Assembly (NCBI GenBank): GCA_018883245.1 | Contig: VEQL01000017.1 | Coordinates: 1 to 54,004, forward strand | Source of the DNA: Chthoniobacterales bacterium | Lineage (GTDB): Bacteria > Verrucomicrobiota > Verrucomicrobiia > Chthoniobacterales > JACTMZ01 | DNA length: 54,004 nt | Reading direction: 5' to 3' | Shown: in pieces, positions 1-48,171 of the stretch | How positions within the stretch are numbered: the stretch's first letter is position 1 | How the letters are laid out: each line of letters begins with the position of its first letter | The notes under the pieces: generated by a model | Database searches by the model: none | The model's input: only the letters and a program-made list of their open reading frames with translations | What the model was told of the DNA's origin: nothing | Position numbers and translations under genes: made by a program

Positions 1-1
1 C

Positions 2-103
2 CGGCATATTCTCGAAACCGCGGCCCGCGCCGCGTGGCAGAACAACCTAGACGCAACGCCGCAAGAGGCAGGCACCGAGACCAGCCGCGGCCAAGGCCAG
101 TAA
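2..103 (+). CDS. 3' end of a second alpha/beta hydrolase gene (partial at window edge)
   Basis: The last 33 codons are identical at nucleotide level to the end of the complete hydrolase at 15607-16725. The reading frame is open to the left edge and stops at TAA 101-103. Whether the upstream part is intact cannot be seen. As in the complete copy, its 3' end overlaps the 3' end of a convergent beta-lactamase-like gene, here a truncated one. Confidence 0.7.
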   Translation, partial: RHILETAARAAWQNNLDATPQEAGTETSRGQGQ

Positions 104-498
104 CGAATACGTCGACGGCTCTGGCACAAGCAGGGGCCTGAGTTGCGAGGCCACCTCGTCGGGGAAGTGGTAGCCGTCGGTAGAATACGAATTGGCGAGG
201 ACGACCATCGTCTGGTCCAGCGCCGGATCATAAAGGCCAATGGTTTGGTAGCCGGGCGGATAGCTGCCGTTGTGCCCAACCCAACCCTCGGCATCCATGA
301 CACCAAAACCGTAGCCGAAGCCCTCGGCGAGCGGGACCAGATCAAGACGCTCGCTCTGGCTTTGGGCAGACACCAAGTCGCCGCGCCCCACCGCCTCGAT
401 CCAAACCCGCACGTCTTCCAAGGTCGAAACGATACCCCCTGCCCCGCCGAAAATGGACGGATGGTAGACCTCGGCTAAAGTTTGCGCGCCCGTGGCGT
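47..498 (-). pseudogene. 5'-truncated beta-lactamase-family serine hydrolase with PEP-CTERM tail
   Basis: The frame encodes about 150 residues matching the C-terminal 40% of the intact protein at 16669-17817, including the HNGSYPPG segment (equivalent to the KTG box) and the VPEPSTYS PEP-CTERM signal with its hydrophobic helix and basic end. The N-terminal half, with the SxxK nucleophile and YSN motif, is missing. Homology breaks at about 498, after which the frame runs into unrelated sequence for 15 codons. Without the catalytic serine and the signal peptide the fragment cannot be an active exported enzyme. The break point is the left border of the inserted 14.9 kb segment. Confidence 0.85.
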
Positions 499-578
499 GA
501 TTCCGCATTACGAGAGTGCGGCTTGGACAATCAATCAGCCCCAAAAGCCTCTCTCACCTTGGATCTGCTCTCACGAGG

Positions 579-3500
579 TCAGCGGTTGAGATGCAATTTT
601 AGCCGCCAGAATTGCTTCTTTGGATCTGACGGCAGGCCGAGGGGCAACTCGTTGTCGTCGCCGGCGGTTGTGATGAGATCCGCGGGAGCAACCGCCCCGA
701 AGGTGTTCGTCAAATTTAGCGTGCTTTGCAATTCGTAGCTGAAGGCTTCCGCGTAGGCGCCGGGGAACCGCCAGCGCATGGTGTAACTGCCATTTGTCTC
801 CCGGTTGACGCGCACGTTGCGCGGGAACAGGTCGGCCACGGGCGTGCTTGAACCGAGCATCGGATCGGCTCCGTCGAGGTAAAGTTGCACGAGCGATTTG
901 CCGCCGGCGCCCGTGGCCTGCGGATTCTGTCCTTTCGCCCCGTAGAACGCCTGCTCCCAGGCGTCCGCCAGCAGATTGCCGTCGGCATCGGCGCCTAATT
1001 GCGTGGGCAAAGCGAGGAGAGCCACGGACTTCACCTCGATGGCCTGTCCGTAAGAACCGGCGGGCGCCGTGACATCGGTGTATCCCGTGACCACGATGCG
1101 CGTCCCCGGACGCAGCGAAATGCTGCCATTGAAATTGTAGGTTGCGCCGCTGGCATCGAGCAGATGGTAGGGAGTCGCCATGAAACTCGGGGGCTCGGCC
1201 GGTATTTCAAACACGCCACCGTGCCCGAGGGTCAGGGTCAGAATGCTCTCCGGACGCGGCACGGACGAAGCAAGCAACTGGGCTACAGCGTTGAAAGCGT
1301 TGGTCCTGGTGGAGCCCGTGATGCCGGTGACATTGGTCGACAGGGTCCCGGTGCGGATGAATGTGCGCAGGGTGTCGATCGGCATCGGCACAGCCGGCGG
1401 AACATTGGTCGGCACGGTGTTGGAGAGAACCTGGGCGATTTGGTCCGCCGTTAAAGCCGTGGCATCCGCCGGCTTCGTGCGGCTGCTGGATTCGTAAACC
1501 GCGTCCGCCAGTTGCAGCAGGGCCAGTGTGTTCGTTGTCTTCGAGTTGGTGGCAGCCAACGTGTCGCGGATAGGATCACGCAGGCCTGCGAACGTGTAGG
1601 CCGGAACGCCCGCGATACCGCCCGACTTGAGGGCGGTCAGATTGGTGTCGTTCAAGGGAACACGCGACTCGTCCCCGGCCCGCCCCGGCAGCAGGGTGAG
1701 ACTGGTTTCACCCAGCAGGGACTCCAGCTTCCGCTCGACGAGCAGGGCTGTGAGCGTTTCAGGGACTGAATTCGTGGCATAGACATGCTCCGTTCCCGGC
1801 GTGAACACGATTTCGAAGATGAGCGGCTTGCCGGTGTCGGCCCGCTGCTTCTCGCCGAGCGCCACGACCGTCCTCGGCTCGAGATCGGAATTGGCCTGCG
1901 TGTAACCCAAGCCGGTATTCGTCGGGGCATTCTGGCTGACCACGAAACGGGGCATCGACCCGGTCACGGTGACCGGTCCGCGGCTCATCCAGCCGGCGCC
2001 GCCGTGCGTCGCATTCAGCGCGGCCTGCAGAGCCGCGGCCGTGACGTTGAAAGCGTTGGTCACCGAAGCACCGCCAGCCATGCCCTCGCTGAGAACGAAC
2101 GTCCCGTTGGTCGGAAGATAATTCGCGCGCAGCATGGAAACCCAATTCGTCGCCGCGGAGGAGATATCGCCGCCACCGAAATAGGATTCGGGCAGGATCG
2201 AGGAAAGTTGCGGTGAGTCCACCAGCACGACCATTTCACGCCCCGGGGTCGGGTAATTCGTGCTGGCCTTCACGTTGAACTTGAAATTCTGCGGAGTGAA
2301 CGCCGCGAGATACGGCGTGGTCGGACCGGCCACCACGTTCCTGACATCGGCCAAGGCGTTGGAAGTCGTGGCGGTGATGTGGGTCGGGGCACTCCCGAGC
2401 AACGAACCGACCGGCGACTTCACGGAGACCACCACATTGCTGGCGGCCGCGCGATTGGTCGCCGAGGCGCCGGTGCCATCGCGCCCGTTGACATAAACGC
2501 GCAGCATGAACGACGGATCGTTGAGTGTGCCGATTTTCGATCCATCGCTGCCACGCGCAATGTAGTCGTCAGGGTCGGACGGATCGGTGCCCGCGGCGAT
2601 TTCCGCCAGATCAGAATCGCCGTCGCCGTCGGTGTCGGCCCCTGCGGTCGGATCGAGCCCGTAAGCCTGTTCGACATAATCCGGCACGCCATCGCCATCG
2701 CTGTCCATGGCGGACCCCGAAGATTCGAAGGTGAACTCCGCCGCACCCATCGGACTGCGGAGGCCCGTCGCGGTCGTAGAATAGAAAAGCAGGGTGCCAT
2801 TTTGGATGAGCACAGGGGGTTTCGATGCGTTGTAAACGGCCCATGTTCCCTCGCTCGAGTTGGCATCGAAGCGGTAGTAGATGGCGCGATCCGGCGCGGA
2901 TCCGGCACCGACCAAACGGGCATTCTCCGCGGAGGTGAGTTCGATTTCGGTGGCGGAGGAGAAATGCCCGCCGGCCGGGCTCGCCGTGACGGTGTCAGTG
3001 ACCGGACCCGAGGCCGCGCCGTAGTTGAAGTAGGAAACATCGTCGGCGAATTGGCTGCCCAGCGCATGGGTCGCGCCGGCAGGGGTGCTCCCCGCACTGA
3101 CGACGGAAGCCGAACCAAGCCCGGCGGCCGCTCCGAGGAAGAGTTCCTTGGTCACGTTGTTCGGCGATGGAAGGGGCGAGTTGGTCGAAACGCCGCTGCT
3201 CCAGTCGCCTGCGTTGACGGCGCCGACGATGCGGGCGAAGGGATCAGCCAGCGGCTTGCCGTTGAAGAAAATCACATTGCCGCGCGAAGCGAGGGGCGAA
3301 CCGGACGGGAGCGCCGTCGAGGCGACAAACTTGCCGTCTTTGTCATAGCGTCCGAGCGAGGACGAAGCACCATCCTCGGTCGCTCCCTCGAGCAGGACGA
3401 ATTCGCCATTGGCCAAGGCCACCGCTCCAGTGAAGGTCGATGCCGCGCTTGGCGACAAGGCCTTCGCGAGGGTGAGAGGAGAACCGGGCGTGTAATCATA

Positions 3501-4475
3501 CAACGCGGCCCGCGGCGTGCCGTAAGTGAAACGAAGGAGCAATCGGTCGGGGGCAGCCCCCTGCCCCGGCACGACCGTGACGCTCGCCACCGTGTTGCCC
3601 GGGTTCACGATCTGCGGCGAGTAATCCGGCGCCGCATTGGCCACTCCCGCGACAATGGCCAATGGCGAGGGCACGACTTTGTAGGCGTAGAGCATGCCGT
3701 CCTTGAGCACGATGAGGCGCGGTTGCAGCGCGGGGCCAAAGAACCCGCTGGCCACGGAGTAGTTTCCGTCCATGGCCAAAGTCGCGTCCGGAGTGGCCAC
3801 ATTCATCGACCCATCGCTGGCGTCGTGAAGTTGCAGTGTGCTGGCGCCGTAGGTTGATCCCACGCTGATGGCCACCAAAGCATTTGTCGATCCGCGGGCG
3901 GTCAAGACAGGGAGCATGCGGTTGACCGTCATCGAATTGGTCGGACTCCCATTGGCCACCGGTGATTTCAGATTGCCGGCCGCATTGCGCAGGGTCTCCA
4001 CCTTTGTGCCGTCCGGGGCATTGTTCAGCACAGTGGACAGCACCGCATCCTCGTAGCCGGTAGCGTTGGTCAGGCGTGCCAGCAAACCCTTCGATGGACC
4101 AATACCCATGGGGTGGAAGGGAGTGACGGAAAACGCATTGGTGCCGGAAAGTCTGACTGCGGAAAGGCCGCTCTGGGGTTCGAGCAGGAGCGCATCAACG
4201 CGGTTGGTCGCGAAAATGCGCCCCACGGTCAGCCCGCTGATCTTCGGAAAAATGACCTGCGGGCCGGACACGGCAAAAGCTCCTCCGGCCTGACCGAGCG
4301 CCACGCGAACCTGGCCGTTGTCTTTGTCGGCAATGACCACGTCCGGTTCGCCGTCGTTGTTGAAATCCGCGGAGGCGACCAACTCGCGGCCGTTTTCCTC
4401 GGTCGGCGCGGCAGACCGGACGAACGCGGGAAACGCGAGGATGGCGGCGGTTAGGGTGAGGGTGAGACGTTTCAT
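579..4475 (-). CDS. Giant exported protein with FG-GAP-like and thrombospondin type 3 repeats
   Basis: A 1298-residue protein with a clear signal peptide (MKRLTLTLTAAILAFPAFV, cleavage near residue 22). An FG-GAP/VCBS-like calcium loop (ADFNNDGEPD) follows at about residues 36-45. Around residues 588-635 there are two or three aspartate-rich thrombospondin type 3 units (DSDGDGVPD, DTDGDGDSD), which in this family bind calcium. A further such loop (DADGNLLADAWEQ) sits near residue 1190. The rest is Thr/Ser/Asn/Ala-rich and beta-predicted, as expected for a cell-surface or extracellular protein. It is the last gene of a three-gene operon; its ATG overlaps the stop of the preceding gene by four bases. 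No enzyme domain is recognised. A structural or adhesive role is inference. Confidence 0.85.
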   Translation of the reverse strand: MKRLTLTLTAAILAFPAFVRSAAPTEENGRELVASADFNNDGEPDVVIADKDNGQVRVALGQAGGAFAVSGPQVIFPKISGLTVGRIFATNRVDALLLEPQSGLSAVRLSGTNAFSVTPFHPMGIGPSKGLLARLTNATGYEDAVLSTVLNNAPDGTKVETLRNAAGNLKSPVANGSPTNSMTVNRMLPVLTARGSTNALVAISVGSTYGASTLQLHDASDGSMNVATPDATLAMDGNYSVASGFFGPALQPRLIVLKDGMLYAYKVVPSPLAIVAGVANAAPDYSPQIVNPGNTVASVTVVPGQGAAPDRLLLRFTYGTPRAALYDYTPGSPLTLAKALSPSAASTFTGAVALANGEFVLLEGATEDGASSSLGRYDKDGKFVASTALPSGSPLASRGNVIFFNGKPLADPFARIVGAVNAGDWSSGVSTNSPLPSPNNVTKELFLGAAAGLGSASVVSAGSTPAGATHALGSQFADDVSYFNYGAASGPVTDTVTASPAGGHFSSATEIELTSAENARLVGAGSAPDRAIYYRFDANSSEGTWAVYNASKPPVLIQNGTLLFYSTTATGLRSPMGAAEFTFESSGSAMDSDGDGVPDYVEQAYGLDPTAGADTDGDGDSDLAEIAAGTDPSDPDDYIARGSDGSKIGTLNDPSFMLRVYVNGRDGTGASATNRAAASNVVVSVKSPVGSLLGSAPTHITATTSNALADVRNVVAGPTTPYLAAFTPQNFKFNVKASTNYPTPGREMVVLVDSPQLSSILPESYFGGGDISSAATNWVSMLRANYLPTNGTFVLSEGMAGGASVTNAFNVTAAALQAALNATHGGAGWMSRGPVTVTGSMPRFVVSQNAPTNTGLGYTQANSDLEPRTVVALGEKQRADTGKPLIFEIVFTPGTEHVYATNSVPETLTALLVERKLESLLGETSLTLLPGRAGDESRVPLNDTNLTALKSGGIAGVPAYTFAGLRDPIRDTLAATNSKTTNTLALLQLADAVYESSSRTKPADATALTADQIAQVLSNTVPTNVPPAVPMPIDTLRTFIRTGTLSTNVTGITGSTRTNAFNAVAQLLASSVPRPESILTLTLGHGGVFEIPAEPPSFMATPYHLLDASGATYNFNGSISLRPGTRIVVTGYTDVTAPAGSYGQAIEVKSVALLALPTQLGADADGNLLADAWEQAFYGAKGQNPQATGAGGKSLVQLYLDGADPMLGSSTPVADLFPRNVRVNRETNGSYTMRWRFPGAYAEAFSYELQSTLNLTNTFGAVAPADLITTAGDDNELPLGLPSDPKKQFWRLKLHLNR

Positions 4476-7400
4476 GGCACCGTGACGGAGTTGAGGACCG
4501 GGATGACATGCTTGGGTTCCTTCGACACGGAATCAAAGCGGACGAGCAGGTAGCGGTAAGTCGCACCGCTTACCACCGGCAGCGTGTCGGTGAGATACAT
4601 TTTGTAGATCAACTTTCCGTCGGAAGTAATTTCGCCGGCCGTATTGCTCAGCCGGATGAAACGGTCGTAGATCCGCGTCCAAGCACCGTTGGGATTGGAA
4701 ACGTTGCCCTGCGCATCGACAAATCCGTAGGCGATGCTTTCCATCAATGGCGTCACCTGCACCAGATCCTGTTTGATCCCGGTATCGCCGAAAGGATCCG
4801 CCACGCGGTAGCGGTAGAGTGCACAGGGGAAGAGGCTGTTCTTGGCATCATCCTCTCTGGCGACACGGAAAACCGCCTTGTTCGGATCGACGCGCCGGTT
4901 TTGCAGTGTTGTCAGACCATTGTCGTTCTTGTCGGGAGCCGAAGGTAGATCGATGCGCCCGATGCTCACACCGATGCCGTCGAAATTCCCCGTTTCGAAA
5001 GTCGTGAGGACCTTCGGCGCGATATTGAGGACGGCAGGCAATTCAAACCCCGATCCTGCATCCGAAGCGCCGAGGTAAATCTTCTCGGGCTGGAACTTCG
5101 GCGGCACCGGCCGCTGCGGCCAGGGGACATGCGCCTCCGAGACGACGGGGGTCTCCCACGAACCCGATTGCACATTGCTCGGGCCACCCAAGGTTGAGGT
5201 CGCGCTCACCGCCTGCACCAGCACCGTGTAGGTCGACCCGCTTTCCGCCGGCAGCGCGATGCTGAACTCCGCGGGCGGCTCCGGCAAAGTGGTCGCATTG
5301 GCTTCCCCGGAGAAGCGACCCGCCACGCGCGACGTGCGGTAGAGACCGAATTTTTTGTCACCCTCCGGCCCGTAAAGCTGGCCGTCACCGGGCGCGATAT
5401 TGTCGCCAAGTTCCGCCACTCCCAAGCTCGACGGGGGCATATGGCCGCCTTGGGAAATCCAGACGAGGAAATGATCCACGCCTTGCGGCGGACACGTCCA
5501 CGAGACATTGAGCGTACGGCTCGATCCGGCCGCGGGGTTAGCCGTGATGCGCTCAAGATAAGGCACCGGAACTTTCAGCGCGGGGAATTCGCGGCATCCG
5601 CACCGGTAATAAGCCCCAGCATTGCCGTCCACGTCATAAGCCTGCGCGTAATAACAGACACGGCCGCCGTTCATCGGCGGGGGATTGCGATCGGTGAACG
5701 TTACTACGGTCATGGCCACCGGCGGTTCGTCGAACTCGATACGGTCGATGAACGTCATAGGACCGTCGTTGACGCGACGATAAATCTTCACTTCGCGGGT
5801 CAGCGGCTCGACCTCCGCCGTGCCGGAAGACGGCACGACATCTCCGGTGCCGGCATCCACCGGACCCGGATCGCCGCCATCGGGGCACTGGGCCGTGGCC
5901 GGGACCATTTCGATCGTCGTGTCGGCCTCGAAAGGCAATTCGCCGCTGATCACTCCGTTGTCATTGATGCCGGCCGTGAGGGGCGCGACTTTCGGCGACA
6001 CGGCACCGTTGGCCGTGCCCGCGCGGCAGCGCAGGTTGGCGACATTGGCCGAGGATTGTCCGAACGTGGCGGCATCATACGTCACGACATATTCGGCCAC
6101 GTTGTTCCCGGGGCCGTAAGCAATCGTCGCCAGCACCGTGTCCGGCGCAGTTCCACCGTTCTTGTAGGAAAACTCGACCCACGCGATGGCCGGATCGGTG
6201 CGCGTGCATTTCAGCATGAAGGGAATGCGTCCGCCGACTTCCGTGTTGGTGCCCTTCACCGTCACGGGGGCTTTTGGCGTGACCGTGGGACGCTGGCACG
6301 GCACATCGACGCCGCCCCCGACCACCTGCGGGCCTTCGCGATCACGGATCACACCGAAAACCGGCGCACTGTGACCACTGCGGAAGGTCTGCGTGCCGTA
6401 GGTGCCGGCGTTGACCGTCCGCACGGACCGCACCGTATACCAGAATGTCTTGCCGGCATCCGATTCGTCCGGGCTTCCGGCGATGTCATCGGTGAAATAA
6501 GTCGTGGCTATGTTGGTGGCCACGGGGTCGGCACCGACCGAACGCCGCGCTCCGTCGTAGGTATCCCAGCGATACACTTCGTAGCGGATGGTTCCCGCTT
6601 CCGGTCCGGCATCGACGGCGTCCCATGTGATTTTGAAACGTTGCCGGTCGCCGGCCGCTGCCGACCAATTGAAATCGTTGCGCACCTCGACCCCGCGCAC
6701 GGTCGGCGGCGGCATGCGGTTGAAGATGGCGACTTTCGTTCCGGGGGAGACAGCACCGTCGCGCCCGAGCACATCCAGAGCGGTAACGAAATAGGAATAC
6801 TCTTTGTAGCCACCGGACAACGTCACGCTGTTGGTGATCTCGTCGGTGTAGAACACAGTCGCGGTATTGTTCGTGTCCGCCGCCTGCACCGCGCTGAGAT
6901 CGTCCGCATTGACCACCGGCAGCGTGTTCACTTTGACCACGCCGGACCTGTTCATGAGATCTTGGAAAGTCGGACCATTGGTGCCCCCCACCCACGCAGG
7001 CGGCGTGTTGGTGCCGTCCAACCGGTAGATATTGTAACCGTTCTGCAGCACGGACCGCTGCCGCAAATCGTCTGGCGTGGCCCAGCGCAGGCGCACGGCG
7101 CGATTGACCCTCTGGCCCTGCAGTTGCGTGACGAACTGGTTGAAACCCGCGGTTGCCTTCACATCGTTCGTGCTGCTCGCACCGCGATAGGACGCGAAGA
7201 GCGTGGGCTTGGCGGAAATAGCCGGCAAGGTGACCGGCGTCACATCCACCCCGGCATTCACGGGCGCGCCGGGCCGCGGCAATTTGGCCGGCGCCACACT
7301 CGGATCGATCGTCACGCGTCCCACCACAGCCATGTCCGCCCCGGTGGATGGGTCCATCAAGCGCACTTCGAAGGTGGAAGGTCCCGCGGTCGGCACCGGA

Positions 7401-7960
7401 CCGGCCCACGCGGAGCCGAGGCAGAGATTCACGCCCGGAAAGGTTTTGCCGAGCAATTCGAGGTCGGTGCGGTATTCCTCGTCGGCCATGGCCGCGGCGA
7501 CCACGTTGGCCAATTTGGTCGAAACATCCTGACCCTGCGCCGAGGCAGCCAGGCTGCCGAACATCTGGTCGAGCTTGGCGGAGAGTTCCTCTTCCTGCGT
7601 CGCGGCGGGGACACTCGACGAGCGCAGCGACCACGAGCGCTGCAGCAAAGCCTTCACCGTGCCCGGATCCACCGCCGCGCGCATCGTGCCCACGGCGGAA
7701 TACGTGCCCGCCGCGGAAGCCACGCCGTCCTTGCGATACACCGTGTAAACCGGATCCGCACCCGCTGCGGGCGAATGTCCCCCGGCGAGTTGGCTGACGA
7801 GATAAGCCGTGGCGTTGGTTCCATCGGTGACAAACGTCGCGCCCGTGACCAGCGAACGGTTCGAGTTGTCGCAATCCGGACACACCGGAATAGGCGGCGC
7901 GAAAAGCGTCGCCGCCACCGCAAGCAGCGCGGTCGAACCGGTGATGACAGTCTTTCTCAT
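4472..7960 (-). CDS. Large exported protein with fibronectin type III-like domains
   Basis: An 1162-residue protein beginning with a signal peptide (MRKTVITGSTALLAVAATLF). Several segments have the tryptophan/tyrosine pattern of fibronectin III strands, for example the stretches ending in YNIYRLDG (~residue 310), YSYFVTALD (~390), YEVYRWD (~460) and, after CYYAQAYD, further Ig-like modules towards residue 900. Cysteine pairs such as CPDCD near the N-terminus and CGC in the middle suggest oxidised disulphides outside the cytoplasm. It is the middle gene of the operon: one base separates it from the upstream 1800-residue gene and its stop overlaps the next ATG (ATGA). No catalytic motif is seen. 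It probably works with its two neighbours, but the function is unknown. Confidence 0.8.
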   Translation of the reverse strand: MRKTVITGSTALLAVAATLFAPPIPVCPDCDNSNRSLVTGATFVTDGTNATAYLVSQLAGGHSPAAGADPVYTVYRKDGVASAAGTYSAVGTMRAAVDPGTVKALLQRSWSLRSSSVPAATQEEELSAKLDQMFGSLAASAQGQDVSTKLANVVAAAMADEEYRTDLELLGKTFPGVNLCLGSAWAGPVPTAGPSTFEVRLMDPSTGADMAVVGRVTIDPSVAPAKLPRPGAPVNAGVDVTPVTLPAISAKPTLFASYRGASSTNDVKATAGFNQFVTQLQGQRVNRAVRLRWATPDDLRQRSVLQNGYNIYRLDGTNTPPAWVGGTNGPTFQDLMNRSGVVKVNTLPVVNADDLSAVQAADTNNTATVFYTDEITNSVTLSGGYKEYSYFVTALDVLGRDGAVSPGTKVAIFNRMPPPTVRGVEVRNDFNWSAAAGDRQRFKITWDAVDAGPEAGTIRYEVYRWDTYDGARRSVGADPVATNIATTYFTDDIAGSPDESDAGKTFWYTVRSVRTVNAGTYGTQTFRSGHSAPVFGVIRDREGPQVVGGGVDVPCQRPTVTPKAPVTVKGTNTEVGGRIPFMLKCTRTDPAIAWVEFSYKNGGTAPDTVLATIAYGPGNNVAEYVVTYDAATFGQSSANVANLRCRAGTANGAVSPKVAPLTAGINDNGVISGELPFEADTTIEMVPATAQCPDGGDPGPVDAGTGDVVPSSGTAEVEPLTREVKIYRRVNDGPMTFIDRIEFDEPPVAMTVVTFTDRNPPPMNGGRVCYYAQAYDVDGNAGAYYRCGCREFPALKVPVPYLERITANPAAGSSRTLNVSWTCPPQGVDHFLVWISQGGHMPPSSLGVAELGDNIAPGDGQLYGPEGDKKFGLYRTSRVAGRFSGEANATTLPEPPAEFSIALPAESGSTYTVLVQAVSATSTLGGPSNVQSGSWETPVVSEAHVPWPQRPVPPKFQPEKIYLGASDAGSGFELPAVLNIAPKVLTTFETGNFDGIGVSIGRIDLPSAPDKNDNGLTTLQNRRVDPNKAVFRVAREDDAKNSLFPCALYRYRVADPFGDTGIKQDLVQVTPLMESIAYGFVDAQGNVSNPNGAWTRIYDRFIRLSNTAGEITSDGKLIYKMYLTDTLPVVSGATYRYLLVRFDSVSKEPKHVIPVLNSVTVP

Positions 7961-7961
7961 G

Positions 7962-10900: not shown

Positions 10901-13364
10901 GGTCGAAATCCGCCGCCTCGTGGATGCCGCTCACGCCGGCATTGCGGGTGTAGTATTGCGAGCGCGCAGTGAGCGCGTAAGCCGCAGGTGCCCCGCCGGC
11001 GAGGATGCTGCTGGCATTCGCCGTGCCGAAATCCGTCGTGCGGAAGTTGATGCCCGGATAGTCCGCGATGTGCGCGTCGGACTCGACGTAAGCCGCCGTG
11101 CCGGGGCGTGCCACATTGTCGTCGGCCACGCCGGCGCGATCGACGCCGCTGTAGAGGATGGCACCCGCCCCGAGCCACGCGCTGCTCGAAGCTTCCGGGG
11201 CTGTTGAGGCTGTTGCCGCCACGCCGCCGGGCAAGGACGAACCCGCCATGAGGTAGGCTCCCTCGTCGAACGAAGTCGTGATGGTGTGCGCATACTTGGT
11301 GATATCGCCCGGGTTCTGACCCCACATGAGATAGAGCGGACCAACCGCCCCGCCATCACTCTCCCGCGCTTGGCCATTGGCCTGCAGTCCGCCGTCCCGC
11401 GTGACCCGCAAGACGGCACCGTCGGGTGTGAATTGCATCAGTCCAGTATCCGGCGCGTTGTCGCAGGCTGGTGAGACATCTCCTCTGTCGGCACATGCCC
11501 GATTGTAGGGAACAAGGAAAGCCCCCACCCCTGTCATCGAACTGGCCGCGGGCACAATCTTGTCAGCCGCGATGGTGATCGTGCCACCGCCGTAGTTGAT
11601 GTCCTGACTGAGATCCGTCGGCGCAGCATACGGCAAATGCGGATGGAATTTGTATCCGCCAAGCGTCAACTGGGCCGTCACGGTGCCATTGCCGTTGCCG
11701 TCACGGGCGATGGTCAAAGTTCCCCCGCTCACATTGTTGGCCCCGAGGTAAAGATGGTCGTTGGCCGCCTTCTTGGCCGCGGAGGGATTGATGAGTTTTG
11801 CGCTATCAGCCTCGAGCGACTCCACCTCGGCCAAACGCACTGGCGTGACGCTGGTGACAGCGGCCGTCATCTGCCCCGTCGATCCCGTCCAGTCGATGCC
11901 GCTGACCGCATACTCAACCGGTTTCGACTCCTCGGTCAGGCGGCCGGCGGGCAGACTGACCACACCGGACGGGTCGAGCGCTTGCGTCAAACCGACATTC
12001 GTCGTGCTGAGCGTCGAACCGAAGCGCATGGTATTCGCATTCGTCGTGCAGCTGACACCGGGCGGCAGAGTGACCGACATGGTTCCCGCCGCCAACCCGG
12101 AGGTGCTGAGTTGAAGATTCGCGCGCTCGAAGCCGATACCCTTCAATGAGTCCGTGTCGGACGCCGGACCAGTGACGTTGACCGTCGGGCTGCCGGCGAG
12201 CAGATAAGCGATGCCGTTCGTGGCAAGGGCCACGTTCAACGGGCCGCCGCCAAACGTGTAAGCATCCCCCTGCCCGACGATGCGCCCTGTTCCCGCAGCG
12301 AGCGTAAGCGTCGTGGACCGACGGGTGCCACTGATTCCGCCCGCCGACGGCGTGTTCGAAATGTCCGTGAACGTGGTCTGGATCGTGTTGAACCGCAGTT
12401 CCCCGTTGAAGTCGAGCAGCGTGGCGGCGCCCGTTGCGGCTCCATTGTAAACACTGATGTAGGTCTCGGAGCCGGGCACATCCATGAAAGCCACCGTGAC
12501 CGTCGCAGTGTAGGTGCGATTGACCGCATCAAGCTGGCCGGTCGGACGGATCTCGAGGTCGCCCAACGCCGAAGTCTTGGAATAAGGATCATCGGCAAAC
12601 AAAGCCTTGGCCAGCACATCGGCAACCGAACGATCGAAAGTCGAAGTCGCGAGAGGAATGACCGCATTGAGGTCGTCGCGCAGGACCACTGAGACCCGCA
12701 GGCTGACCGAGGCGGTGGCAGCACCGGGATCGTAGCGGTAGAGCTTCACCGTCGGCGTGATCTTGAAAGCGGATTCGGGCGCGGCGGCGTCGGCCGAGGA
12801 GACGCGGAAAGTTTGCGAGTAGGCACCGGTTTGCATGAGGGCCGAGACGCGCAGGGATGCGGCAGCGGTGTTCGCAAAATGAATGTAGCTGTTCCCGGTC
12901 GCTTGGGTGCCGGACTCACTCAGATCCGCGTGAATGGCATCGGTCACATCCCAGACCGAAAGCACCTTGAATTTGTAAACACGCGACGGATCGAGACGAT
13001 CGTAGGGCACGATGTCGGCATCGACGGTGACGCCCGCGGGCGTGCTTTTGACAAAAGCCTGCGTGACATCAACCGAGACGGTCTCGTTGGCTTTGGCCGT
13101 GCCGCCATCGAGGTAGATCCCGACGGGCGCCGGAAACGCCGAGTCATCGACCAATTGAAATGTCACCCGCAACGTGCGATTTCCCGTGATCGGCGAAGCA
13201 TAGGCAAATTGCGCTCTGGACCTGACCGAGCGCCTCGTCGCATCGCCCGCAATGACGTGGCCGGGGACGGTGTAATTCGGCGTGGTGACTGTCACCGCGG
13301 CACAGGCGCCGCAAATAAGGAGAGCGTTGAACGCTACGGTCGCGACGTTTTTTACGCTCGGCAT
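7962..13364 (-). CDS. Giant exported protein of unknown function, first gene of the operon
   Basis: An 1800-residue protein. I chose the ATG at 13364 because it opens a good signal peptide (MPSVKNVATVAFNALLICG, cleavage after ACA). An in-frame GTG at 13406 would add 14 charged residues in front. The N-terminal ~1100 residues are Gly/Ser/Thr/Ala-rich and beta-predicted. Residues ~1200-1520 are rich in Ala, Glu and Leu and look alpha-helical, possibly a coiled rod. The last ~280 residues alternate hydrophobic and polar residues with many glycines, like a large beta sheet or barrel, and contain a CPFC motif near the end. No known enzyme domain is recognised. The order beta / helical rod / beta suggests a surface or secretion-related structure. 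That is inference. Confidence 0.8.
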   Translation of the reverse strand: MPSVKNVATVAFNALLICGACAAVTVTTPNYTVPGHVIAGDATRRSVRSRAQFAYASPITGNRTLRVTFQLVDDSAFPAPVGIYLDGGTAKANETVSVDVTQAFVKSTPAGVTVDADIVPYDRLDPSRVYKFKVLSVWDVTDAIHADLSESGTQATGNSYIHFANTAAASLRVSALMQTGAYSQTFRVSSADAAAPESAFKITPTVKLYRYDPGAATASVSLRVSVVLRDDLNAVIPLATSTFDRSVADVLAKALFADDPYSKTSALGDLEIRPTGQLDAVNRTYTATVTVAFMDVPGSETYISVYNGAATGAATLLDFNGELRFNTIQTTFTDISNTPSAGGISGTRRSTTLTLAAGTGRIVGQGDAYTFGGGPLNVALATNGIAYLLAGSPTVNVTGPASDTDSLKGIGFERANLQLSTSGLAAGTMSVTLPPGVSCTTNANTMRFGSTLSTTNVGLTQALDPSGVVSLPAGRLTEESKPVEYAVSGIDWTGSTGQMTAAVTSVTPVRLAEVESLEADSAKLINPSAAKKAANDHLYLGANNVSGGTLTIARDGNGNGTVTAQLTLGGYKFHPHLPYAAPTDLSQDINYGGGTITIAADKIVPAASSMTGVGAFLVPYNRACADRGDVSPACDNAPDTGLMQFTPDGAVLRVTRDGGLQANGQARESDGGAVGPLYLMWGQNPGDITKYAHTITTSFDEGAYLMAGSSLPGGVAATASTAPEASSSAWLGAGAILYSGVDRAGVADDNVARPGTAAYVESDAHIADYPGINFRTTDFGTANASSILAGGAPAAYALTARSQYYTRNAGVSGIHEAADFDRLLQLYGAAPVGYPVKFTTFKFSYLDNFNEDSRTDGSITLPEPSDFTVDFSRLTLTCPGGLNEAQVDSSVPLLLKYWGDAPITPLSLRFHTADGCSPAGPAVLVMGVQAECELFDKLLSGELGFRGSGQIAARADPQVAANGVPPFDSRLKVPSVGLPGPASKTYTFTPSQDAYFNAADADGAADTGYLNLAGTVDVPFFEDLKWHVQSGADYTEGLVPGLYEVAGGWESAGDTFFSNIFFDAENKGFGGASAEAYRQSLRDGGTYAVTARQDWLGITDAFHYDLQWNQGGRAFSSEDVTKDFFVVSLSHRAKYLCPDTAELTFGLSYDGLPQVNLSGLADSALDSGVGYTQNLIDAMGDVAAGALLGGLDAGKTLLSNEIEDLMAPVIDGPVMSEVDTLLDSLYGGAPGEPAAEISVANATAAVNSAIRNPGAVRAAINTAFTTVGDVNGTGTAVGVVNSSLTDIRGGVEKLTASNGLFQTAGIKKLVSSLVAREAPQFVSLVAGELAGAALDDVVNTPALDEIRSSLGGVNTLLAEIGDKVVNPTTGLKAQLNAKMSAEIVSLSDSIADAVDEELARFASAGNIDMAEVPRAELRARIRSIIADRLVSSETAGALQTQVRQYVQDAVTACTTQIDSGMQQVNGTLRDVIATRLAEVDQSINGSILGPMSDMLGTGRLSGYAHITGDSLTLLRVDGRFRFKVPDDLDLSAYLQIKQLTSDNAGGCVPAGQTANEVLIGAERVPLEWISPNLKANVGVKFTLMDGDPIGLGGFFDMTGGPLTFEAFTINDMNAALAFGAIDGDPWAAENYLAASADLQIESWGMAGGVFFGRSCSLDPIALIDPEVAGVLGNPPFTGAYLYGEARLPVNELIGIPSSCMLHIGIGAGNGVFYFAEGPTFGGKLVGEVSGEALCLVSISGRMSLVGSKQGLDLTGPMRFAGKGTLKGKAGACPFCVRFKKSVGIKFNVSGGDISSPDISY

Positions 13365-13501
13365 AAGGGGGAAAGTGCGTTTCGGGGCGCGTCTCACCCG
13401 AAACACAAGGCCGACGACAATTGATAAATACGCAGCTAATGTGAATGCGCAACAAGTTTTTTGCGGTCAACAGGATATTGGTATAGCGTGTCGCTCGGGC
13501 C
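13365..13501. promoter_or_regulatory. Divergent promoter region between giant-protein operon and DUF1573 gene
   Basis: This 137-base gap separates two divergent signal-peptide genes and is clearly more A+T-rich (especially 13430-13490) than its surroundings. Rightward, a TTGCGG-like box at 13461 and TATAGC at 13482-13487 could form a weak promoter with a very short leader before the ATG at 13502. Leftward boxes are less clear. No Shine-Dalgarno sequence precedes either start. Boxes were judged by eye only. Confidence 0.4.
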
Positions 13502-14143
13502 ATGAGATCTACTGCTGCACTCGTCCTGATCTTGTCGCCAGTTGCGCCGTTATTTGCCCTGACGTGGGACCAGACCACCATCGAGCGTGACACCATGGGC
13601 GAGAAAGTAAACGCCGAGTTTCATTTTACCAACAAAGCAGCCGTTCCCGTCCGGATCCAAGCCGTGCAAACCTCCTGCGGTTGCACCGTGGCCGCCCCGC
13701 AGAAACGTGAATATGCCCCGGGCGAAAGCGGCACACTCCCCGTGACCCACGATCCGGAAGGACGCACCGGCGTCCGCGCCTACCGCATCACCGTCCGGAC
13801 CGACGAAGACGGCGCGAAGCCCGACGAACTCATCCTCAAAGTCAACATCGCCCGCCAAATCGAGGCCGGGGTGCGCGTGGCCGTGTGGGAGCAAGGCGAG
13901 GAACGCGCGGCCAAGAGTATCCCTTTCAAGATCGATGCGCGCTCACCGGTTGCGGTCACCGGCGCGCAACCGGAAAAAGACCTGGTGTCCGCCGAGGTCG
14001 TCGATGGCCCCGCGCCTGGCGAGGAATTTCTCAAGATCACTCCCAAGGAAGATGTCGCACCCGGTCAAACGCGCATTCGTCTCGTCACCGAACCTCCGTT
14101 GCATGATTCAGTGAGCGGACTCTTCTTCGCGGTCCTGCGCTGA
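13502..14143 (+). CDS. DUF1573 family exported protein
   Basis: A 213-residue protein with a signal peptide (MRSTAALVLILSPVAPLFA). The mature part carries the DUF1573 hallmark: an Ig-like/ASH-type beta domain with the sequence QTSCGCTVA (Cys59 and Cys61), preceded by the typical phrase on replacing strands (FHFTNKAAVPVRI). A second beta region fills residues ~115-210. DUF1573 proteins are common in Bacteroidetes, Planctomycetes and Verrucomicrobia, are exported, and have no established function. The gene converges on a membrane-anchored rhodanese and overlaps its 3' end by 36 bases, a pairing that suggests a shared link to periplasmic sulfur or thiol chemistry (inference). Confidence 0.9.
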   Translation: MRSTAALVLILSPVAPLFALTWDQTTIERDTMGEKVNAEFHFTNKAAVPVRIQAVQTSCGCTVAAPQKREYAPGESGTLPVTHDPEGRTGVRAYRITVRTDEDGAKPDELILKVNIARQIEAGVRVAVWEQGEERAAKSIPFKIDARSPVAVTGAQPEKDLVSAEVVDGPAPGEEFLKITPKEDVAPGQTRIRLVTEPPLHDSVSGLFFAVLR

Positions 14144-14590
14144 ACGCGTTCCCGCATCCCGCCCCGTCTGGTAGAGGTCTTTGAAGTAGTTTCCCGTAAG
14201 GACGCGCACGCCCTCCAGCCCGGCCTCCTCGCGCAGCCGCGTTGCCAGCTCCGCCGCGAGACTGCACGAAGGCGAACCGCAATAGGCAACCACAACGCTA
14301 TCCGGGGGCCATTCTTCCACGGCGAATCGCAGGTACTCCGAAGGAGCGTCCGCCGGCAGGGAATACGCCTTGGGAAGGTGGCCGTTAGCGAACCTTTTCT
14401 CGCTCCGCGCATCAACAAGCACCCATTCACCGGCCGTTACGCGAGGCTTTGTCTCCTCCCACTCGACAGTCTCAATTTCGCCTATAATCGAATGATTAGG
14501 AACAGACCAGTGCTTCCAGGCCAATCCAGCGCCAAGCGTAAGCAGGGCGAGCAGCAGAATGACGGGAGACCGGATTTTACGAGAAAACAT
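14108..14590 (-). CDS. Membrane-anchored rhodanese-like sulfurtransferase
   Basis: A 160-residue protein. Residues ~9-25 form one hydrophobic helix, an uncleaved anchor or signal peptide, so the rest should lie in the periplasm. Residues ~53-140 are a single rhodanese domain: WVLVDARSEKRFANGHLPKA is the conserved first half, and the active-site loop is YCGSPSCSLA with the likely catalytic cysteine at 104. Rhodaneses of this type move sulfane sulfur or act as persulfide carriers. The extra cysteine at 109 in the loop is notable. The gene faces the DUF1573 gene and their ends overlap by 36 bases. Confidence 0.9.
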   Translation of the reverse strand: MFSRKIRSPVILLLALLTLGAGLAWKHWSVPNHSIIGEIETVEWEETKPRVTAGEWVLVDARSEKRFANGHLPKAYSLPADAPSEYLRFAVEEWPPDSVVVAYCGSPSCSLAAELATRLREEAGLEGVRVLTGNYFKDLYQTGRDAGTRSAQDREEESAH

Positions 14591-14691
14591 AGAATGCTAG
14601 ACTCTTTTCCCCTGTTCGCACCCAACGAATGCTGAGGCAACACAAAAACGGACCAACCCTCCCGGATTGGCCCGTTGATTGAGCAGCAGTC

Positions 14692-14985
14692 TCAATCCTC
14701 GTAACTCCCGCCCCGCCCGAGCTTGGTCTTCACGCTCGCGCTCACCGGCACAACCTTGTCGATCTCAAGGTTTTGCTCGGCTGTGAACAGCGTGTGACGC
14801 GCCGTGTGGAAGTCCTTGGTGGGCTTGAACACGGCCTTGGCGGAGAGCGCGGCCCCTGCCCCGTGGCGGGCGAATAGGTCCTGCAACTCGCCGATAATCG
14901 ACTCCACGGCCGACTCCGGAATCATGTCGCCCTTGATCTTCAGCTCAAAGGACTGCCTGAAGAACTGCGCGCCTTTCTCCCCCAC
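14692..14985 (-). CDS. Conserved small protein, 97 residues, GTG start
   Basis: Not recognised. The frame starts at a GTG (14985); no in-frame ATG lies just upstream. The product is mixed alpha/beta: residues ~10-20 (SFELKIKG) and ~66-90 (LEIDKVVPVSASVKTKLG) look like strands around two helices (ESIIGELQDLFARHG). It has no signal peptide or membrane segment. Evidence that it is a real gene is the decayed homologue at 53260-53460, where the same C-terminal sequence (IDKVVPVS..VRTKL..GG.YE) is still readable although a stop codon interrupts it. A GATTGAG/CTCAATC inverted repeat covers its stop codon. Confidence 0.65.
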   Translation of the reverse strand: MGEKGAQFFRQSFELKIKGDMIPESAVESIIGELQDLFARHGAGAALSAKAVFKPTKDFHTARHTLFTAEQNLEIDKVVPVSASVKTKLGRGGSYED

Positions 14986-15289
14986 GGCCCGAAGAATCGG
15001 CGCGTCGTGACTAGTGCTTTGTGGGTGTTGTTTTTCATCATGAAACGGATTGCAATCAAGTTGCTAGCGGGGGCCGCCCCATAACTTCCTGATTGTCAAA
15101 AATACGGGCTTCCCTTCGAATCCCGTGCGCGCTGCCACCCCTCCGCCGGACCGACCCGCCTGCGAACCCGCATAAATACTGGCTTCGCGGGCTTTTTCGT
15201 TTTTGGACCGAGTTGACATGAGTTGAAATTCGTTATGTCCCGTTTGTTGCAAACCGTTGCAAAAATTCAAAGAAATTTCGGGGGTGCAT

Positions 15290-15318
15290 CGGTGCACGTA
15301 GCTATTTCCCGTGCACCG
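15290..15318. repeat. Perfect 9-base inverted repeat
   Basis: The arms CGGTGCACG and CGTGCACCG are separated by 11 bases. A third GGTGCA copy lies just upstream (15284-15289), giving GGTGCA-TC-GGTGCA. It sits in non-coding DNA about 300 bases before the hydrolase start. It could be a repressor site or an RNA hairpin. There is no T-run, so it is not a classical terminator. Confidence 0.55.
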
Positions 15319-15414
15319 CGGCGTCGTCGCTTTTGCAACAATTCACCAGAGTAAACGCGTCCTCAGGAACTCCTGCGTGCATTTAGCGCCGCACGTTCGC
15401 TACAGCAGGGTCCT

Positions 15415-15541
15415 AAACCAAGGCGGAATCGTATTTGCTGCAGAGCCTGCTTACACCGCGCCGACCCCGGCACCACCAACACCCCTGCCCCGCCCCGACC
15501 GGCGTTCTGAGAGGTCGTAAAGCCGCTGCCAAGGCCTGCGA
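15415..15541 (-). pseudogene. Fragment of the 19-residue-repeat protein gene (3' end only)
   Basis: Translated leftward, the segment reads GSGFTTSQNAGRGGAGVLVV and PGSARC, nearly identical to the C-terminus of the intact protein encoded at 17893-18387 (SGFTTSQSSGRGGAGVLVV, PGSVRC). The original stop codon is lost, and the rest of the gene upstream is absent. Similarity continues 3' into the spacer that lies between the intact repeat gene and the beta-lactamase-like gene. It is the right-hand remnant of the older copy of the duplicated block. Confidence 0.85.
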
Positions 15542-15606
15542 TCGTCGCCGCGGCATGAGAAGACAAGAACTTGCCTTCGCGCTCGCCTTGCGAAACAAGC
15601 ACCCAG

Positions 15607-16725
15607 ATGCATGCCCTGCTTTTGCGCCCTTTGATCCACGTGGCCATGTCGACCGCGGTGGCTTGCGTGATGATTGGTTGCGAGCAAAAGGACAGTGCCC
15701 GACGCGTCGGTCCTGAGGAGGGTTTTGTCCGCGTCGCGGAAAACGTGGATTTGCACTACCGCGACTGGGGCGGCGACGGTCCGCCGATTGTGCTGCTGAG
15801 CGGCCTGGGCAATACGGCAGCGATTTTCGACGATCTGGCACCGCAGCTGACGAATGCTCACCGGGTCATCGGACTGACCCGCCGCGGGTACGGCGGTTCA
15901 ACCGTGACGGCAGAAGGCTACGATGTTGCTTCGCGCGTGGCGGATGATGCGGCAGCCATGCAGGCTCTCGGCATCAGGCGGGCACTGTTGGTTGGACACT
16001 CGATCGCGGGAGATGAGTTGACCGGTATCGTGCAGGCGCGACCCGATCTGGTTGCGGGTTTGGTTTACCTTGATGCGGCTTTCGACCGCACCGACCAGGC
16101 GGCCGATGCAACATTCGCTGGAGTGGTGCCACTTTTGCCGCAGCCAGAAGAAGTCGTCCGCTTCTCCAGCGACGAAGCGGAGGTGGCATCAGGAGAATTG
16201 AAGCTGAAAAGCTTCGCTGCCGCCCGACGCTTGATCGAAGCAGAGCAGGGAGCGCCGGTGCCCGCCAGCGAGCTGCGCGCACAACTGTCGGTCGATCGGA
16301 ACGGCGTTTACCATTTCAAGGACACCTCCGCTCAAGAGAGGGCGATCCGCACCGGTTCCAGTCGCGTCAAGGCCGACTACCGGGGCATCGTCGTGCCGGT
16401 CACCGCGCTTTATGCCGATTGGGGCGACCCGGCGGCGGCGTTTCCCATCACAGCCTTGGCAGGAGCGGAAGCGCGGGAGACCTTGCGCCACCATGCGACC
16501 AAGATGGCTACATGGGCCGAGCAAGCTGGCCTAAAACAAGTGCGCAGCCAAGTGCCAGCCATTGTGGAAGTCGTCCCCGGGGCACCACACTACATCTTCC
16601 TCAAAGAACCGGCATTGGTCAGCCGGCATATTCTCGAAACCGCGGCCCGCGCCGCGTGGCAGAACAACCTAGACGCAACGCCGCAAGAGGCAGGCACCGA
16701 GACCAGCCGCGGCCAAGGCCAGTAA
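15607..16725 (+). CDS. Alpha/beta-hydrolase fold lipoprotein
   Basis: A 372-residue protein. I chose the ATG at 15607 because it opens a lipoprotein-like signal (RPLIHVAMSTAVACVMIGC, Cys25). A longer frame from 15571 would place charged residues in front of it. The alpha/beta hydrolase core follows: an oxyanion-region LLSGLGNT (~64-70), RRGYGGST (~92-99), and the nucleophile elbow VGHSIAG with Ser132. A late histidine (GAPHYIF, ~residue 340) fits the triad. Substrate unknown. The gene converges on the beta-lactamase-like gene and the two coding regions overlap by 57 bases. A partial second copy lies at the left edge of the window. Confidence 0.85.
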   Translation: MHALLLRPLIHVAMSTAVACVMIGCEQKDSARRVGPEEGFVRVAENVDLHYRDWGGDGPPIVLLSGLGNTAAIFDDLAPQLTNAHRVIGLTRRGYGGSTVTAEGYDVASRVADDAAAMQALGIRRALLVGHSIAGDELTGIVQARPDLVAGLVYLDAAFDRTDQAADATFAGVVPLLPQPEEVVRFSSDEAEVASGELKLKSFAAARRLIEAEQGAPVPASELRAQLSVDRNGVYHFKDTSAQERAIRTGSSRVKADYRGIVVPVTALYADWGDPAAAFPITALAGAEARETLRHHATKMATWAEQAGLKQVRSQVPAIVEVVPGAPHYIFLKEPALVSRHILETAARAAWQNNLDATPQEAGTETSRGQGQ

Positions 16726-17120
16726 CGAATACGTCGACGGCTCTGGCACGAGCAGGGGCCTGATTTGCGAGGCCACCTCGTCGGGGAAGTGATAGCCGTC
16801 GGTAGAATACGAATTGGCGAGGACGACCATCGTCTGGTCCAGCGCCGGATCATAAAGGGCAATCGTTTGGTAGCCGGGCGGATAGCTGCCGTTGTGCCCA
16901 ACCCAACCCTCGGCATCCATGACACCAAAACCGTAGCCGAAGCCCTCGGCGAGCGGGACCAGATCAAGACGCTCGCTCTGACTTTGGGCAGACACCAAGT
17001 CGCCGCGTCCCACCGCCTCGATCCAAACCCGCACGTCCTCCAAGGTTGAAACGATGCCCCCCGCCCCGCCGAAGATGGACGGGTGGCCGACTTCGGCTAA
17101 GGTTTGCGCTCCCGTGGCGG
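16623..17120. repeat. Right copy of the ~0.5 kb direct repeat (partner 1-498)
   Basis: It is the complete-context partner of the sequence at the left edge, in direct orientation about 16.6 kb away. It spans the last codons of the hydrolase gene and the C-terminal coding part of the serine hydrolase. Homologous recombination between the two copies would delete, or tandemly duplicate, the intervening 16.6 kb. Confidence 0.9.
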
Positions 17121-17817
17121 AATCAACCAGGTAACCGCGCGCGTAGGGATCCGGCAGGTCCGCGGTCGCAGGGTAAGCGGTCTGAGTCAGGGACAGCGGT
17201 GTGGTGAACGCCGTCTGGAATTCCTGAGACAGACTGTTGCCCGTCACCTGCTCGATGACCATTTGCAGCAGCACGGTGTGCGTGTTCGAATACTCCCAGG
17301 TTGCTCCCGGGGCGAAATTGGGTCCCTTCTCATTGGCCCGTTCCACCAACTCCAAGGGGCTCCAGACCCTGAGGGGAGCGGCCGTGACCGCCGCAATGAA
17401 GTCGGGGTCGCGGGAGTAATCGAAAAATCCCGCGGTCATGTTGCCGAGCTGTCGCAGGGTCGCCGTGCCGTTAAGCAAACCCGAGCCTGGCAGATTCACG
17501 TAAGCGCTGATCGGATCGTCGAGCGAGAGCCGCCCAGAATCCGCCAATTGAAGCACCCGTGTCGTGGTAAACGTCTTGGTGATGCTCGCGATGCGAAAAT
17601 GGTCTGCGACCGTCATCGGCACACCGCCCCCGATGTCGGAGAAACCGCGCGCAAACACCGTAACCGGTTGACCTCCGCGCCAAACTCCGACAACGGCACC
17701 CGCCACGCTATTGGCTGCCATCTCCGCCTCGACGATGGACTGGATGTCGGAGGCCAGGTCCGCGCGGATCGGAGTTAAGGCAACGATAAGGGCCAGTAAT
17801 ACGAAGACTGCTTTCAT
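16669..17817 (-). CDS. Beta-lactamase family (class C/PBP-like) serine hydrolase with PEP-CTERM anchor
   Basis: A 382-residue protein. The ATG at 17817 begins a standard signal peptide (MKAVFVLLALIVALTPIRA); a longer frame from 17868 exists. Beta-lactamase/D-alanyl-D-alanine carboxypeptidase motifs are present: SITK (Ser78, Lys81), YSN (176-178) and a HNG segment replacing the KTG box (~293). The last ~26 residues form a PEP-CTERM sorting signal (VPEPSTYS, hydrophobic helix, RRCV), which in exosortase-bearing bacteria is cleaved at the outer surface. Class C-like families include esterases and peptidases as well as true beta-lactamases, so resistance should not be assumed. A truncated copy lies at 47-498. 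Confidence 0.9.
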   Translation of the reverse strand: MKAVFVLLALIVALTPIRADLASDIQSIVEAEMAANSVAGAVVGVWRGGQPVTVFARGFSDIGGGVPMTVADHFRIASITKTFTTTRVLQLADSGRLSLDDPISAYVNLPGSGLLNGTATLRQLGNMTAGFFDYSRDPDFIAAVTAAPLRVWSPLELVERANEKGPNFAPGATWEYSNTHTVLLQMVIEQVTGNSLSQEFQTAFTTPLSLTQTAYPATADLPDPYARGYLVDSATGAQTLAEVGHPSIFGGAGGIVSTLEDVRVWIEAVGRGDLVSAQSQSERLDLVPLAEGFGYGFGVMDAEGWVGHNGSYPPGYQTIALYDPALDQTMVVLANSYSTDGYHFPDEVASQIRPLLVPEPSTYSLLALAAAGLGACLLRRCV

Positions 17818-17892
17818 CAAGGCTAAGCGGCTGGCGCGAAAACTACGTTCGGCAGTGTGCTTTGCCAAGGCGGGACCAACTGCGGGCAGAGC

Positions 17893-18387
17893 TTATCGAC
17901 ACCGCACCGATCCCGGCACCACCAACACACCTGCCCCGCCGCGCCCACTGCTCTGCGAGGTCGTAAAGCCGCTGCCAAAGCGCGAGGTCGTAGCCGAGGC
18001 ACCCGAGCTGGTACGGCTGATCGTGCCGTCGCCAAAGCGCTGGGTCGTCGTTGTGGCACCGTCCGAGGAGCGGCTGATCGTGCCGCTGCCAAAACGGCTG
18101 GTGGTCACCGTCTGGCCGTCGCGCCCGCGCGTGATGGCCCCATCGCCAAACTTGCTTGTGGTGAAGTTCTGGCCATCTGACCCACGGGTGATCCAACCGC
18201 TGCCGAAGCGCGAGGTCGTGTAGCTTTTGCCGTCCGAGGTGCGGGTGATGTAGCCATCCCCGAACTTGCTGGTCGTGGCGTTGCCCCGGACGCCAGGAAT
18301 GACCACCGGGGCGGTGCACCTGTCCTGCCCGAAAGACGGACCAACCAAGACCAGATAGATGCAGAGGCCAAAGCCAAGGCTTCTCAT
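17893..18387 (-). CDS. Small exported protein with six 19-residue tandem repeats
   Basis: A 164-residue protein. The ATG at 18387 gives a signal peptide (MRSLGFGLCIYLVLVGPSFG); a longer frame starts at 18405. Residues ~35-145 are six head-to-tail units of 19 residues with the pattern TTS(K/R)FG(D/S)G.I(T/S)R.SDG, that is 57 bases each. The glycine/threonine-rich unit suggests a beta-solenoid or extended surface repeat. The C-terminus (RGGAGVLVVPGSVRC) contains one of a pair of cysteines that could bridge to the N-terminal DRC. Not recognised as a named family. A gene-end fragment of a second copy is at 15415-15541. The gene lies 87 bases beyond the stop codon of brxL and reads in the same direction. 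Confidence 0.8.
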   Translation of the reverse strand: MRSLGFGLCIYLVLVGPSFGQDRCTAPVVIPGVRGNATTSKFGDGYITRTSDGKSYTTSRFGSGWITRGSDGQNFTTSKFGDGAITRGRDGQTVTTSRFGSGTISRSSDGATTTTQRFGDGTISRTSSGASATTSRFGSGFTTSQSSGRGGAGVLVVPGSVRCR

Positions 18388-18473
18388 ATTCCTATTCAGC
18401 CACATTTCAGGCCGCCTGCAAGCCGTAGGCGCTTATGACACATAAACTGGTTGCGTTCACAGCTAAGCCTCAT

Positions 18474-23067: not shown

Positions 23068-23070
23068 GCG

Positions 23071-29673: not shown

Positions 29674-29743
29674 CTTGGCTACACTACTATGCAATACTAC
29701 ACTTGTAAAGTGTAGAGTCGCTTACCTGTGTAGAGTCTTTCCC
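29674..29743. promoter_or_regulatory. Four-half-site symmetric operator and internal promoter in the BREX operon
   Basis: This is the only real gap in the BREX operon. It holds the perfect inverted repeat CTACACTT-GTA-AAGTGTAG (29697-29715) flanked by outer half-sites CTACACT at 29679-29685 and TGTGTAG at 29727-29733. Each outer site is exactly 18 bases from the inner one, so the array is symmetric about 29706. On the leftward strand TTTACA overlaps the inner palindrome and could be a -35 box for the HTH gene, with a weak TAGTGT about 17 bases on. The site very likely binds the HTH protein encoded next door. Confidence 0.75.
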
Positions 29744-48159: not shown

Positions 48160-48171
48160 CTTGCTGCAAAA

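What the first reader, a model, noticed from the sequence alone, without database searches (positions are those of the whole stretch)
1..17985. A 14.9 kb segment inserted into one copy of a tandem duplication
The order hydrolase / serine hydrolase / 19-residue-repeat gene is intact at 15607-18387. Pieces of a second copy lie at 1-498 and about 15415-15541. Together these pieces match the same block with its middle (equivalent to 17121-17845) missing. The simplest history is tandem duplication, followed by replacement of the middle of the left copy by the segment carrying the giant-protein operon, DUF1573, rhodanese and 97-residue genes.
Basis: partly seen in the sequence, partly recalled or inferred. 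Interest (0 to 1): 0.58.

Follow-up and report, generated by a model that had tools for sequence, protein, structure and literature searches.

The report
Giant-protein gene cluster beside hydrolase duplicate
A Verrucomicrobia genome carries a five-gene cluster for giant proteins inside a patchwork of broken gene copies; related species keep the cluster at another place or lack it, so it behaves like an accessory block from elsewhere, while the apparent insertion into a tandem duplication is only partly provable because the assembled sequence ends there.

Summary
The repeats are real: 1-497 is 96% identical to 16623-17119, and 15440-15555 is 81% identical to 17886-18001. Three corrections change the story. 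(1) Position 1 is the end of an assembly contig, and exactly 127 bases are shared before the first mismatch, as at a de Bruijn-graph break. The left copy is unfinished sequence; a strain mixture or collapsed repeat cannot be excluded. (2) The 14.9 kb is not one segment. It holds a five-gene module (579-14590), a truncated gene that borders an integron integrase in a relative (14643-15006), a 23-bp tRNA-Glu 3' end with its downstream sequence (15115-15291), and a repeat-gene remnant. (3) In two congeners the module lies exactly between fumC and a peroxiredoxin gene; those genes are adjacent in 9 of 11 genomes, this one included. In the module this genome is much further from those two congeners than they are from each other, unlike in core genes. 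So this copy most likely came horizontally and landed in a damaged second copy of the hydrolase block. A duplication with disruption of one copy is supported; one clean replacement is not. The mechanism of entry remains open.

The parts
1..127 (.). Contig start; exact copy of 16623-16749, taken as an assembly-graph overlap
   Evidence: overlap rule from passages of PMC10914622
1..102 (+). 3' end of a second alpha/beta-hydrolase copy
   Evidence: identical to 16623-16724
47..497 (-). C-terminal 150 codons of a second serine-hydrolase copy (fragment)
   Evidence: 96% to 16669-17119; 14 synonymous and 4 non-synonymous changes
498..578 (.). Spacer without a convincing match in any held locus
579..4475 (-). 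Giant gene 1 (1298 aa; TSP3 and FG-GAP matches); module starts here
4472..7960 (-). Giant gene 2 (1162 aa, no Pfam match)
7962..13406 (-). Giant gene 3 (1814 aa, no Pfam match)
13502..14143 (+). DUF1573 protein, module gene 4
14108..14590 (-). Rhodanese, module gene 5
14643..15006 (-).
15115..15137 (+). Exact 3' end of tRNA-Glu(CTC), attachment-core-like
   Evidence: 0 expected by chance
15138..15291 (+). Sequence like that downstream of tRNA-Glu in G006
   Evidence: 74% over 15115-15291
15440..15555 (-). Remnant of a second 19-residue-repeat gene
   Evidence: 81% to 17886-18001; 6 synonymous and 16 non-synonymous changes
15571..16725 (+). Alpha/beta hydrolase (first frame start; true start may be later)
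16669..17868 (-). Intact serine hydrolase (beta-lactamase fold family) with PEP-CTERM
17893..18405 (-). Intact 19-residue-repeat gene

Best explanation
The region is an accessory-gene mosaic next to a BREX defence system. A second, homologous copy of the hydrolase block once lay directly to the left of the intact one (direct repeat; shown in part). A five-gene giant-protein module, foreign relative to congeners, now occupies the place of the middle of that copy (position shown; entry inferred). The rest of the 14.9 kb is debris of other events: a truncated gene of a kind that borders an integron integrase in G002, and an attachment-like tRNA-Glu 3' end. The most likely mechanism is horizontal entry of DNA carrying the module together with, or into, a diverged copy of the block, with homologous recombination at the hydrolase genes keeping one end nearly identical (inferred). 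Position 1 is an assembly break, not a biological junction.
For: Direct repeats. Module collinear in G002 and G003 between fumC and a peroxiredoxin gene; these genes adjacent in 9 of 11 genomes including G000. Four-fold-site identity of the three module genes tested is 0.35-0.47 between G000 and G002/G003 but 0.49-0.72 between those two, while core genes show no such gap; protein divergence ratios 1.38-3.17 for five module genes against 0.87-1.87 for seven chromosomal genes. Giant protein 3 in 6 of 213 genomes of the order. Mosaic pieces on the right. Remnant closest to its neighbour.
Against: No relative carries the undisturbed block. The left copy is incomplete because the contig ends. Divergence of the two repeat pieces differs strongly. 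The outgroup test puts more changes on the intact copy (11) than on the fragment (4), with 3 unresolved, which is not what a long-dead fragment would show. No recombinase or transposase lies in the segment among the ORFs tested. The rhodanese ratio (1.38) is within the chromosomal range.
Confidence: 0.55

Rival explanations
1. Assembly effect: the left end joins a strain variant or another locus to this contig through a shared 127-base word, so there is no second copy at this place in any one chromosome.
For: Exactly 127 bases shared at the contig start; assemblers break at branches with end sequences of the largest k, for repeats and strain variants alike (PMC10914622 passages). The fragment differs mainly by synonymous changes, as an allele of another strain would. 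No contig with the missing left flank was found (not all candidates scored).
Against: The repeat-gene remnant at 15440 is inside the contig and is an independent sign of a second block on the left. The switch from fragment to module at 498 lies inside the contig, well away from the break.
Confidence: 0.2
2. A circular or tandem element of about 16.6 kb: 1-16622 is one unit carrying the module, an attachment site at 15115 and a hydrolase copy, which entered by a single crossover in the resident hydrolase; the direct repeats are its flanks.
For: Topology identical to what is seen. The core at 15115 has element-like sequence on its right and no tRNA on its left. tRNA-Glu 3' ends are followed by differing sequences in relatives. 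Identity falls away from the putative crossover.
Against: No integrase, replication or transfer gene in 1-16622 among the ORFs tested. Giant protein 3 had no match in 72,556 plasmid records or in viral contigs.
Confidence: 0.12
3. One reading: tandem duplication in this lineage, then one replacement of the middle of the left copy by a single 14.9-kb segment.
For: Order and orientation of the pieces.
Against: The segment is a mosaic; the pieces have unequal divergence; no segment of this make-up was seen in the 11 genomes of the genus.
Confidence: 0.1

Closest known systems
Genomic islands at tRNA 3' ends (tyrosine-recombinase type)
   Same: Exact 23-bp tRNA-Glu 3' end and downstream sequence shared with G006
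   Different: No integrase found beside it; no second core in the window with up to 3 mismatches; the core has no tRNA on its left
Integron gene cassettes
   Same: A truncated gene at 14643-15006 borders an IntI gene in G002
   Different: The module is 14 kb with five genes; no integrase lies beside it and no attC was shown
Horizontally exchanged accessory gene clusters with empty sites in relatives
   Same: Discrete module, patchy distribution, empty fumC-peroxiredoxin sites
   Different: Module of giant proteins, two of which match no Pfam family; two unrelated sites in one genus; carrier unknown

Membership tests
Disrupted tandem duplication | Two direct copies of one block | tested here: met
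   left copy incomplete
Disrupted tandem duplication | A relative with the undisturbed state | tested here: not met
   none of the 11 genus genomes (G000 counted) has the block undisturbed; G006 has the two hydrolases on different contigs
Disrupted tandem duplication | Both copies in one molecule | not testable with these tools
   needs reads; contig break at position 1
Horizontally acquired module | Patchy distribution and empty sites | tested here: met
   3 of 11 in the genus, 6 of 213 in the order; fumC site empty in 9 of 11
Horizontally acquired module | Divergence out of line with core genes | tested here: met
   few core genes compared
tRNA-targeted integrative element | Attachment core from a tRNA 3' end | tested here: met
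tRNA-targeted integrative element | Integrase gene in the element and a core at its other end | tested here: not met
   not every ORF was tested and the left end is missing
Transposon or IS-borne unit | Transposase in the unit | tested here: not met
Transposon or IS-borne unit | Target duplication at the insert (fumC site of relatives) | tested here: inconclusive
   about 11 nt of the fumC end (CCGTCCTTRAC) recur at the right edge of the insert in G003; in G002 the right copy is clear and the left one diverged; nothing longer than 9 nt shared by the flanks in the window
Integron cassette | attC recombination site and single-gene size | not tested
   no attC search was made; the size speaks against it

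The most novel reading that the evidence does not exclude
The five-gene giant-protein module is a precisely inserted and precisely lost genomic unit without its own recombinase: at the fumC stop codon it is flanked by an 11-nt direct repeat whose recombination would restore the empty site seen in 9 of 11 genomes, and a distantly related version entered this genome separately, in a hydrolase / tRNA-Glu / integron-related mosaic.
Probability: 0.22. Interest if true: 0.55.

Novelty: new member of a known kind. Interest (0 to 1): 0.36.

Why it matters
It shows that a rare cluster encoding very large proteins of unknown function sits at unrelated loci in related Verrucomicrobia, with clean empty sites in their relatives, which makes its gain and loss testable. 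It also warns that the left end of this contig should not be read as a biological junction.

Tried and rejected
Tracing the far side of a tRNA-Glu island in G000 through its usual downstream genes led to a differently arranged locus on C37 with no core. The extension of the 15440 repeat to 15393 was not convincing. A hairpin near the left module junction is no stronger than in shuffles. AlphaFold of the C-terminal 335 residues of giant protein 3 failed (mean pLDDT 26), so no fold search was made. Solved structures gave only chance hits; no Rfam family in 1-20000. Giant protein 3 was not found in plasmids or viral contigs, nor the serine hydrolase in viral contigs. Plain relocation of the module from fumC within this genome was rejected because its divergence is far above that of core genes. 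Recent transfer of the module between G002 and G003 was considered and dropped because their four-fold-site identity in it (0.49-0.72) overlaps that of their core genes (0.36-0.66).

Full report
WHAT THE WINDOW IS. The window is all of contig C17 (54,004 bases) of a draft genome of 2.90 Mb in 84 contigs.

THE OBSERVATION. It is real. Bases 1-497 match 16623-17119 at 96.4%, and 15440-15555 match 17886-18001 at 81%. The first 127 bases are identical and the first mismatch is at 128. In successive blocks of 60 bases the matches are 60, 60, 57, 59, 59, 59, 58, 51 and then 26, which is random. The remnant at 15440 carries the C-terminal end of the 19-residue-repeat gene, and its best match among the loci then held, apart from itself, is the neighbour at 17886. 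The alignment of 15393-15439 with 17845-17885 is weak (8 of 500 shuffles reach it).

THE LEFT END IS PROBABLY AN ASSEMBLY BREAK. I checked nine contig ends of G000 against the stretches of G000 then held (parts of 10 contigs). Only the start of C17 recurred, inside C17 itself, with an exact run of 127. De Bruijn assemblers break where paths branch and leave end sequences of exactly the largest k (passages of PMC10914622; 127 is among the values used there). That this assembly used k = 127 is an inference. It would mean that upstream of 16623 the two copies are either identical and collapsed, or belong to different strains. No other contig of the genome carries the missing left flank (40 of 44 and 40 of 93 candidates were scored).

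THE MODULE. Genes 579-14590 (giant proteins of 1298, 1162 and 1814 aa, DUF1573, rhodanese) form a collinear block in G003 and, over two contigs, in G002. There it lies between fumC, 15 bases from the end of giant gene 1, and a peroxiredoxin gene (these two names come from my reading of the translations, not from a family search). In G006 the two genes are 76 bases apart. A scan of the 11 genomes of the genus shows fumC and peroxiredoxin adjacent in nine (G000, G001, G004-G010; G001 in two pieces 107 bases apart, G005 by its contig C156) and separated by the module in two. So G000 has the empty site on contig C30 and the module elsewhere. At the occupied site about 11 nt of the fumC end recur at the right edge; the bases beyond it look by eye like those of G006 in G003 and those of G001 in G002. 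On a fumC plus peroxiredoxin tree G003 groups with G006 (support 0.97) and G002 with G001, G005 and G010 (1.0), so shared descent of the two occupied sites would need several precise losses. That tree rests on two genes.

ORIGIN OF THE COPY IN THE WINDOW. Between G002 and G003, identity at four-fold sites is 0.72, 0.61 and 0.49 in giant 3, giant 2 and DUF1573, in or above the range of six core genes (0.36-0.66). Between G000 and either of them it is 0.35-0.47 in the three module genes. For fumC, peroxiredoxin, aldehyde dehydrogenase, deoC and a membrane protein, G000 is about as close to G002 and G003 as these are to each other. Protein divergence ratios agree: 1.38-3.17 for five module genes, 0.87-1.87 for seven chromosomal genes; the rhodanese alone (1.38) is within the chromosomal range, and giant 1 of G002 was compared over 494 residues only because its contig ends. 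The version in the window therefore most likely came from a more distant source. Relatives of giant protein 3 occur in 6 of 213 genomes of the order, this one included. G097:C46 also has DUF1573 and both other giant genes; G106 has DUF1573 and a rhodanese beside it, on a contig that ends inside the giant gene.

THE REST OF THE SEGMENT. 14643-15006 is a 5'-truncated copy of a 145-aa gene that in G002 lies 3' of an integron integrase (TIGR02249, 430 bits, cut-off 265). In G003 the same integrase has other genes there. 15115-15137 is the exact 3' end of tRNA-Glu(CTC), whose intact gene is on contig C18, and the next 150 bases resemble what follows tRNA-Glu in G006. A further core without its tRNA is in G003:C59. 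That such tRNA ends serve integrases is general knowledge. No integrase was seen among the window ORFs that I tested.

HISTORY. The serine-hydrolase fragment differs from the intact copy by 14 synonymous and 4 non-synonymous changes in 150 codons. With G006 as outgroup, 11 changes fall on the intact copy (9 synonymous, 2 not), 4 on the fragment (2 and 2), and 3 are unresolved. So most of the divergence shows selection, and the fragment is unlikely to have been dead for long; the numbers are small and I ran no test on them. The repeat-gene remnant shows 6 synonymous and 16 non-synonymous changes. I read this as a second block, either older or brought in with the module, that was disrupted fairly recently. 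What is shown: the repeats, the mosaic, the other locus in relatives, and the divergence. What is inferred: the order of events and the recombination step.

VERDICT. Paper searches (Verrucomicrobia with giant genes and MAGs; Chthoniobacterales with integron; DUF1573 with Verrucomicrobia; tRNA-Glu with genomic island, Verrucomicrobia and integrase) gave three, none, none and none; of the three I saw only the listing. I make no wider claim about what is in print.

Noticed in passing
window 18474-34469: BREX-type defence cluster: matches to BrxL, PglZ, PglX, BrxC, BrxB and BrxA, with a PDC-S20/QatA-like gene at 23071-24621 between PglZ and PglX.
   Followed up: partly
window 44627-51743: Phage-like genes: a helicase, a primase/AAA_25 protein and a phrog_503 protein; no integrase among the ORFs tested.
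   Followed up: no
L048 2512-3888 (G002), L148 2856-4235 (G003), L149 1-1308 (G000:C33): Integron integrase of 459 aa, 95-98% identical between species, with an extra N-terminal part of about 140 residues outside the TIGR02249 match; runs of small ORFs upstream in G003:C46 look like cassettes.
   Followed up: partly
G000:C42 (L150 10249-12009): A fragment of the integron integrase next to a transposase-like gene (my reading: IS256 family, no family search) near a contig end.
   Followed up: no
L092 (G008:C61) 8839-9399: A translated repeat with variable spacers, which looks like a CRISPR array.
   Followed up: no
L060 (G003) and L063 (G002), fumC 3' end: At the occupied site the fumC end can form a hairpin with the first bases of the insert in both genomes, with different bases in the stem; beyond shuffles only in G003 (3 of 200; G002 29 of 200).
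   Followed up: partly
window 53214-53364: A second, 77% identical piece of the 14646-14796 sequence near the right contig end, from the same gene family by protein match.
   Followed up: no
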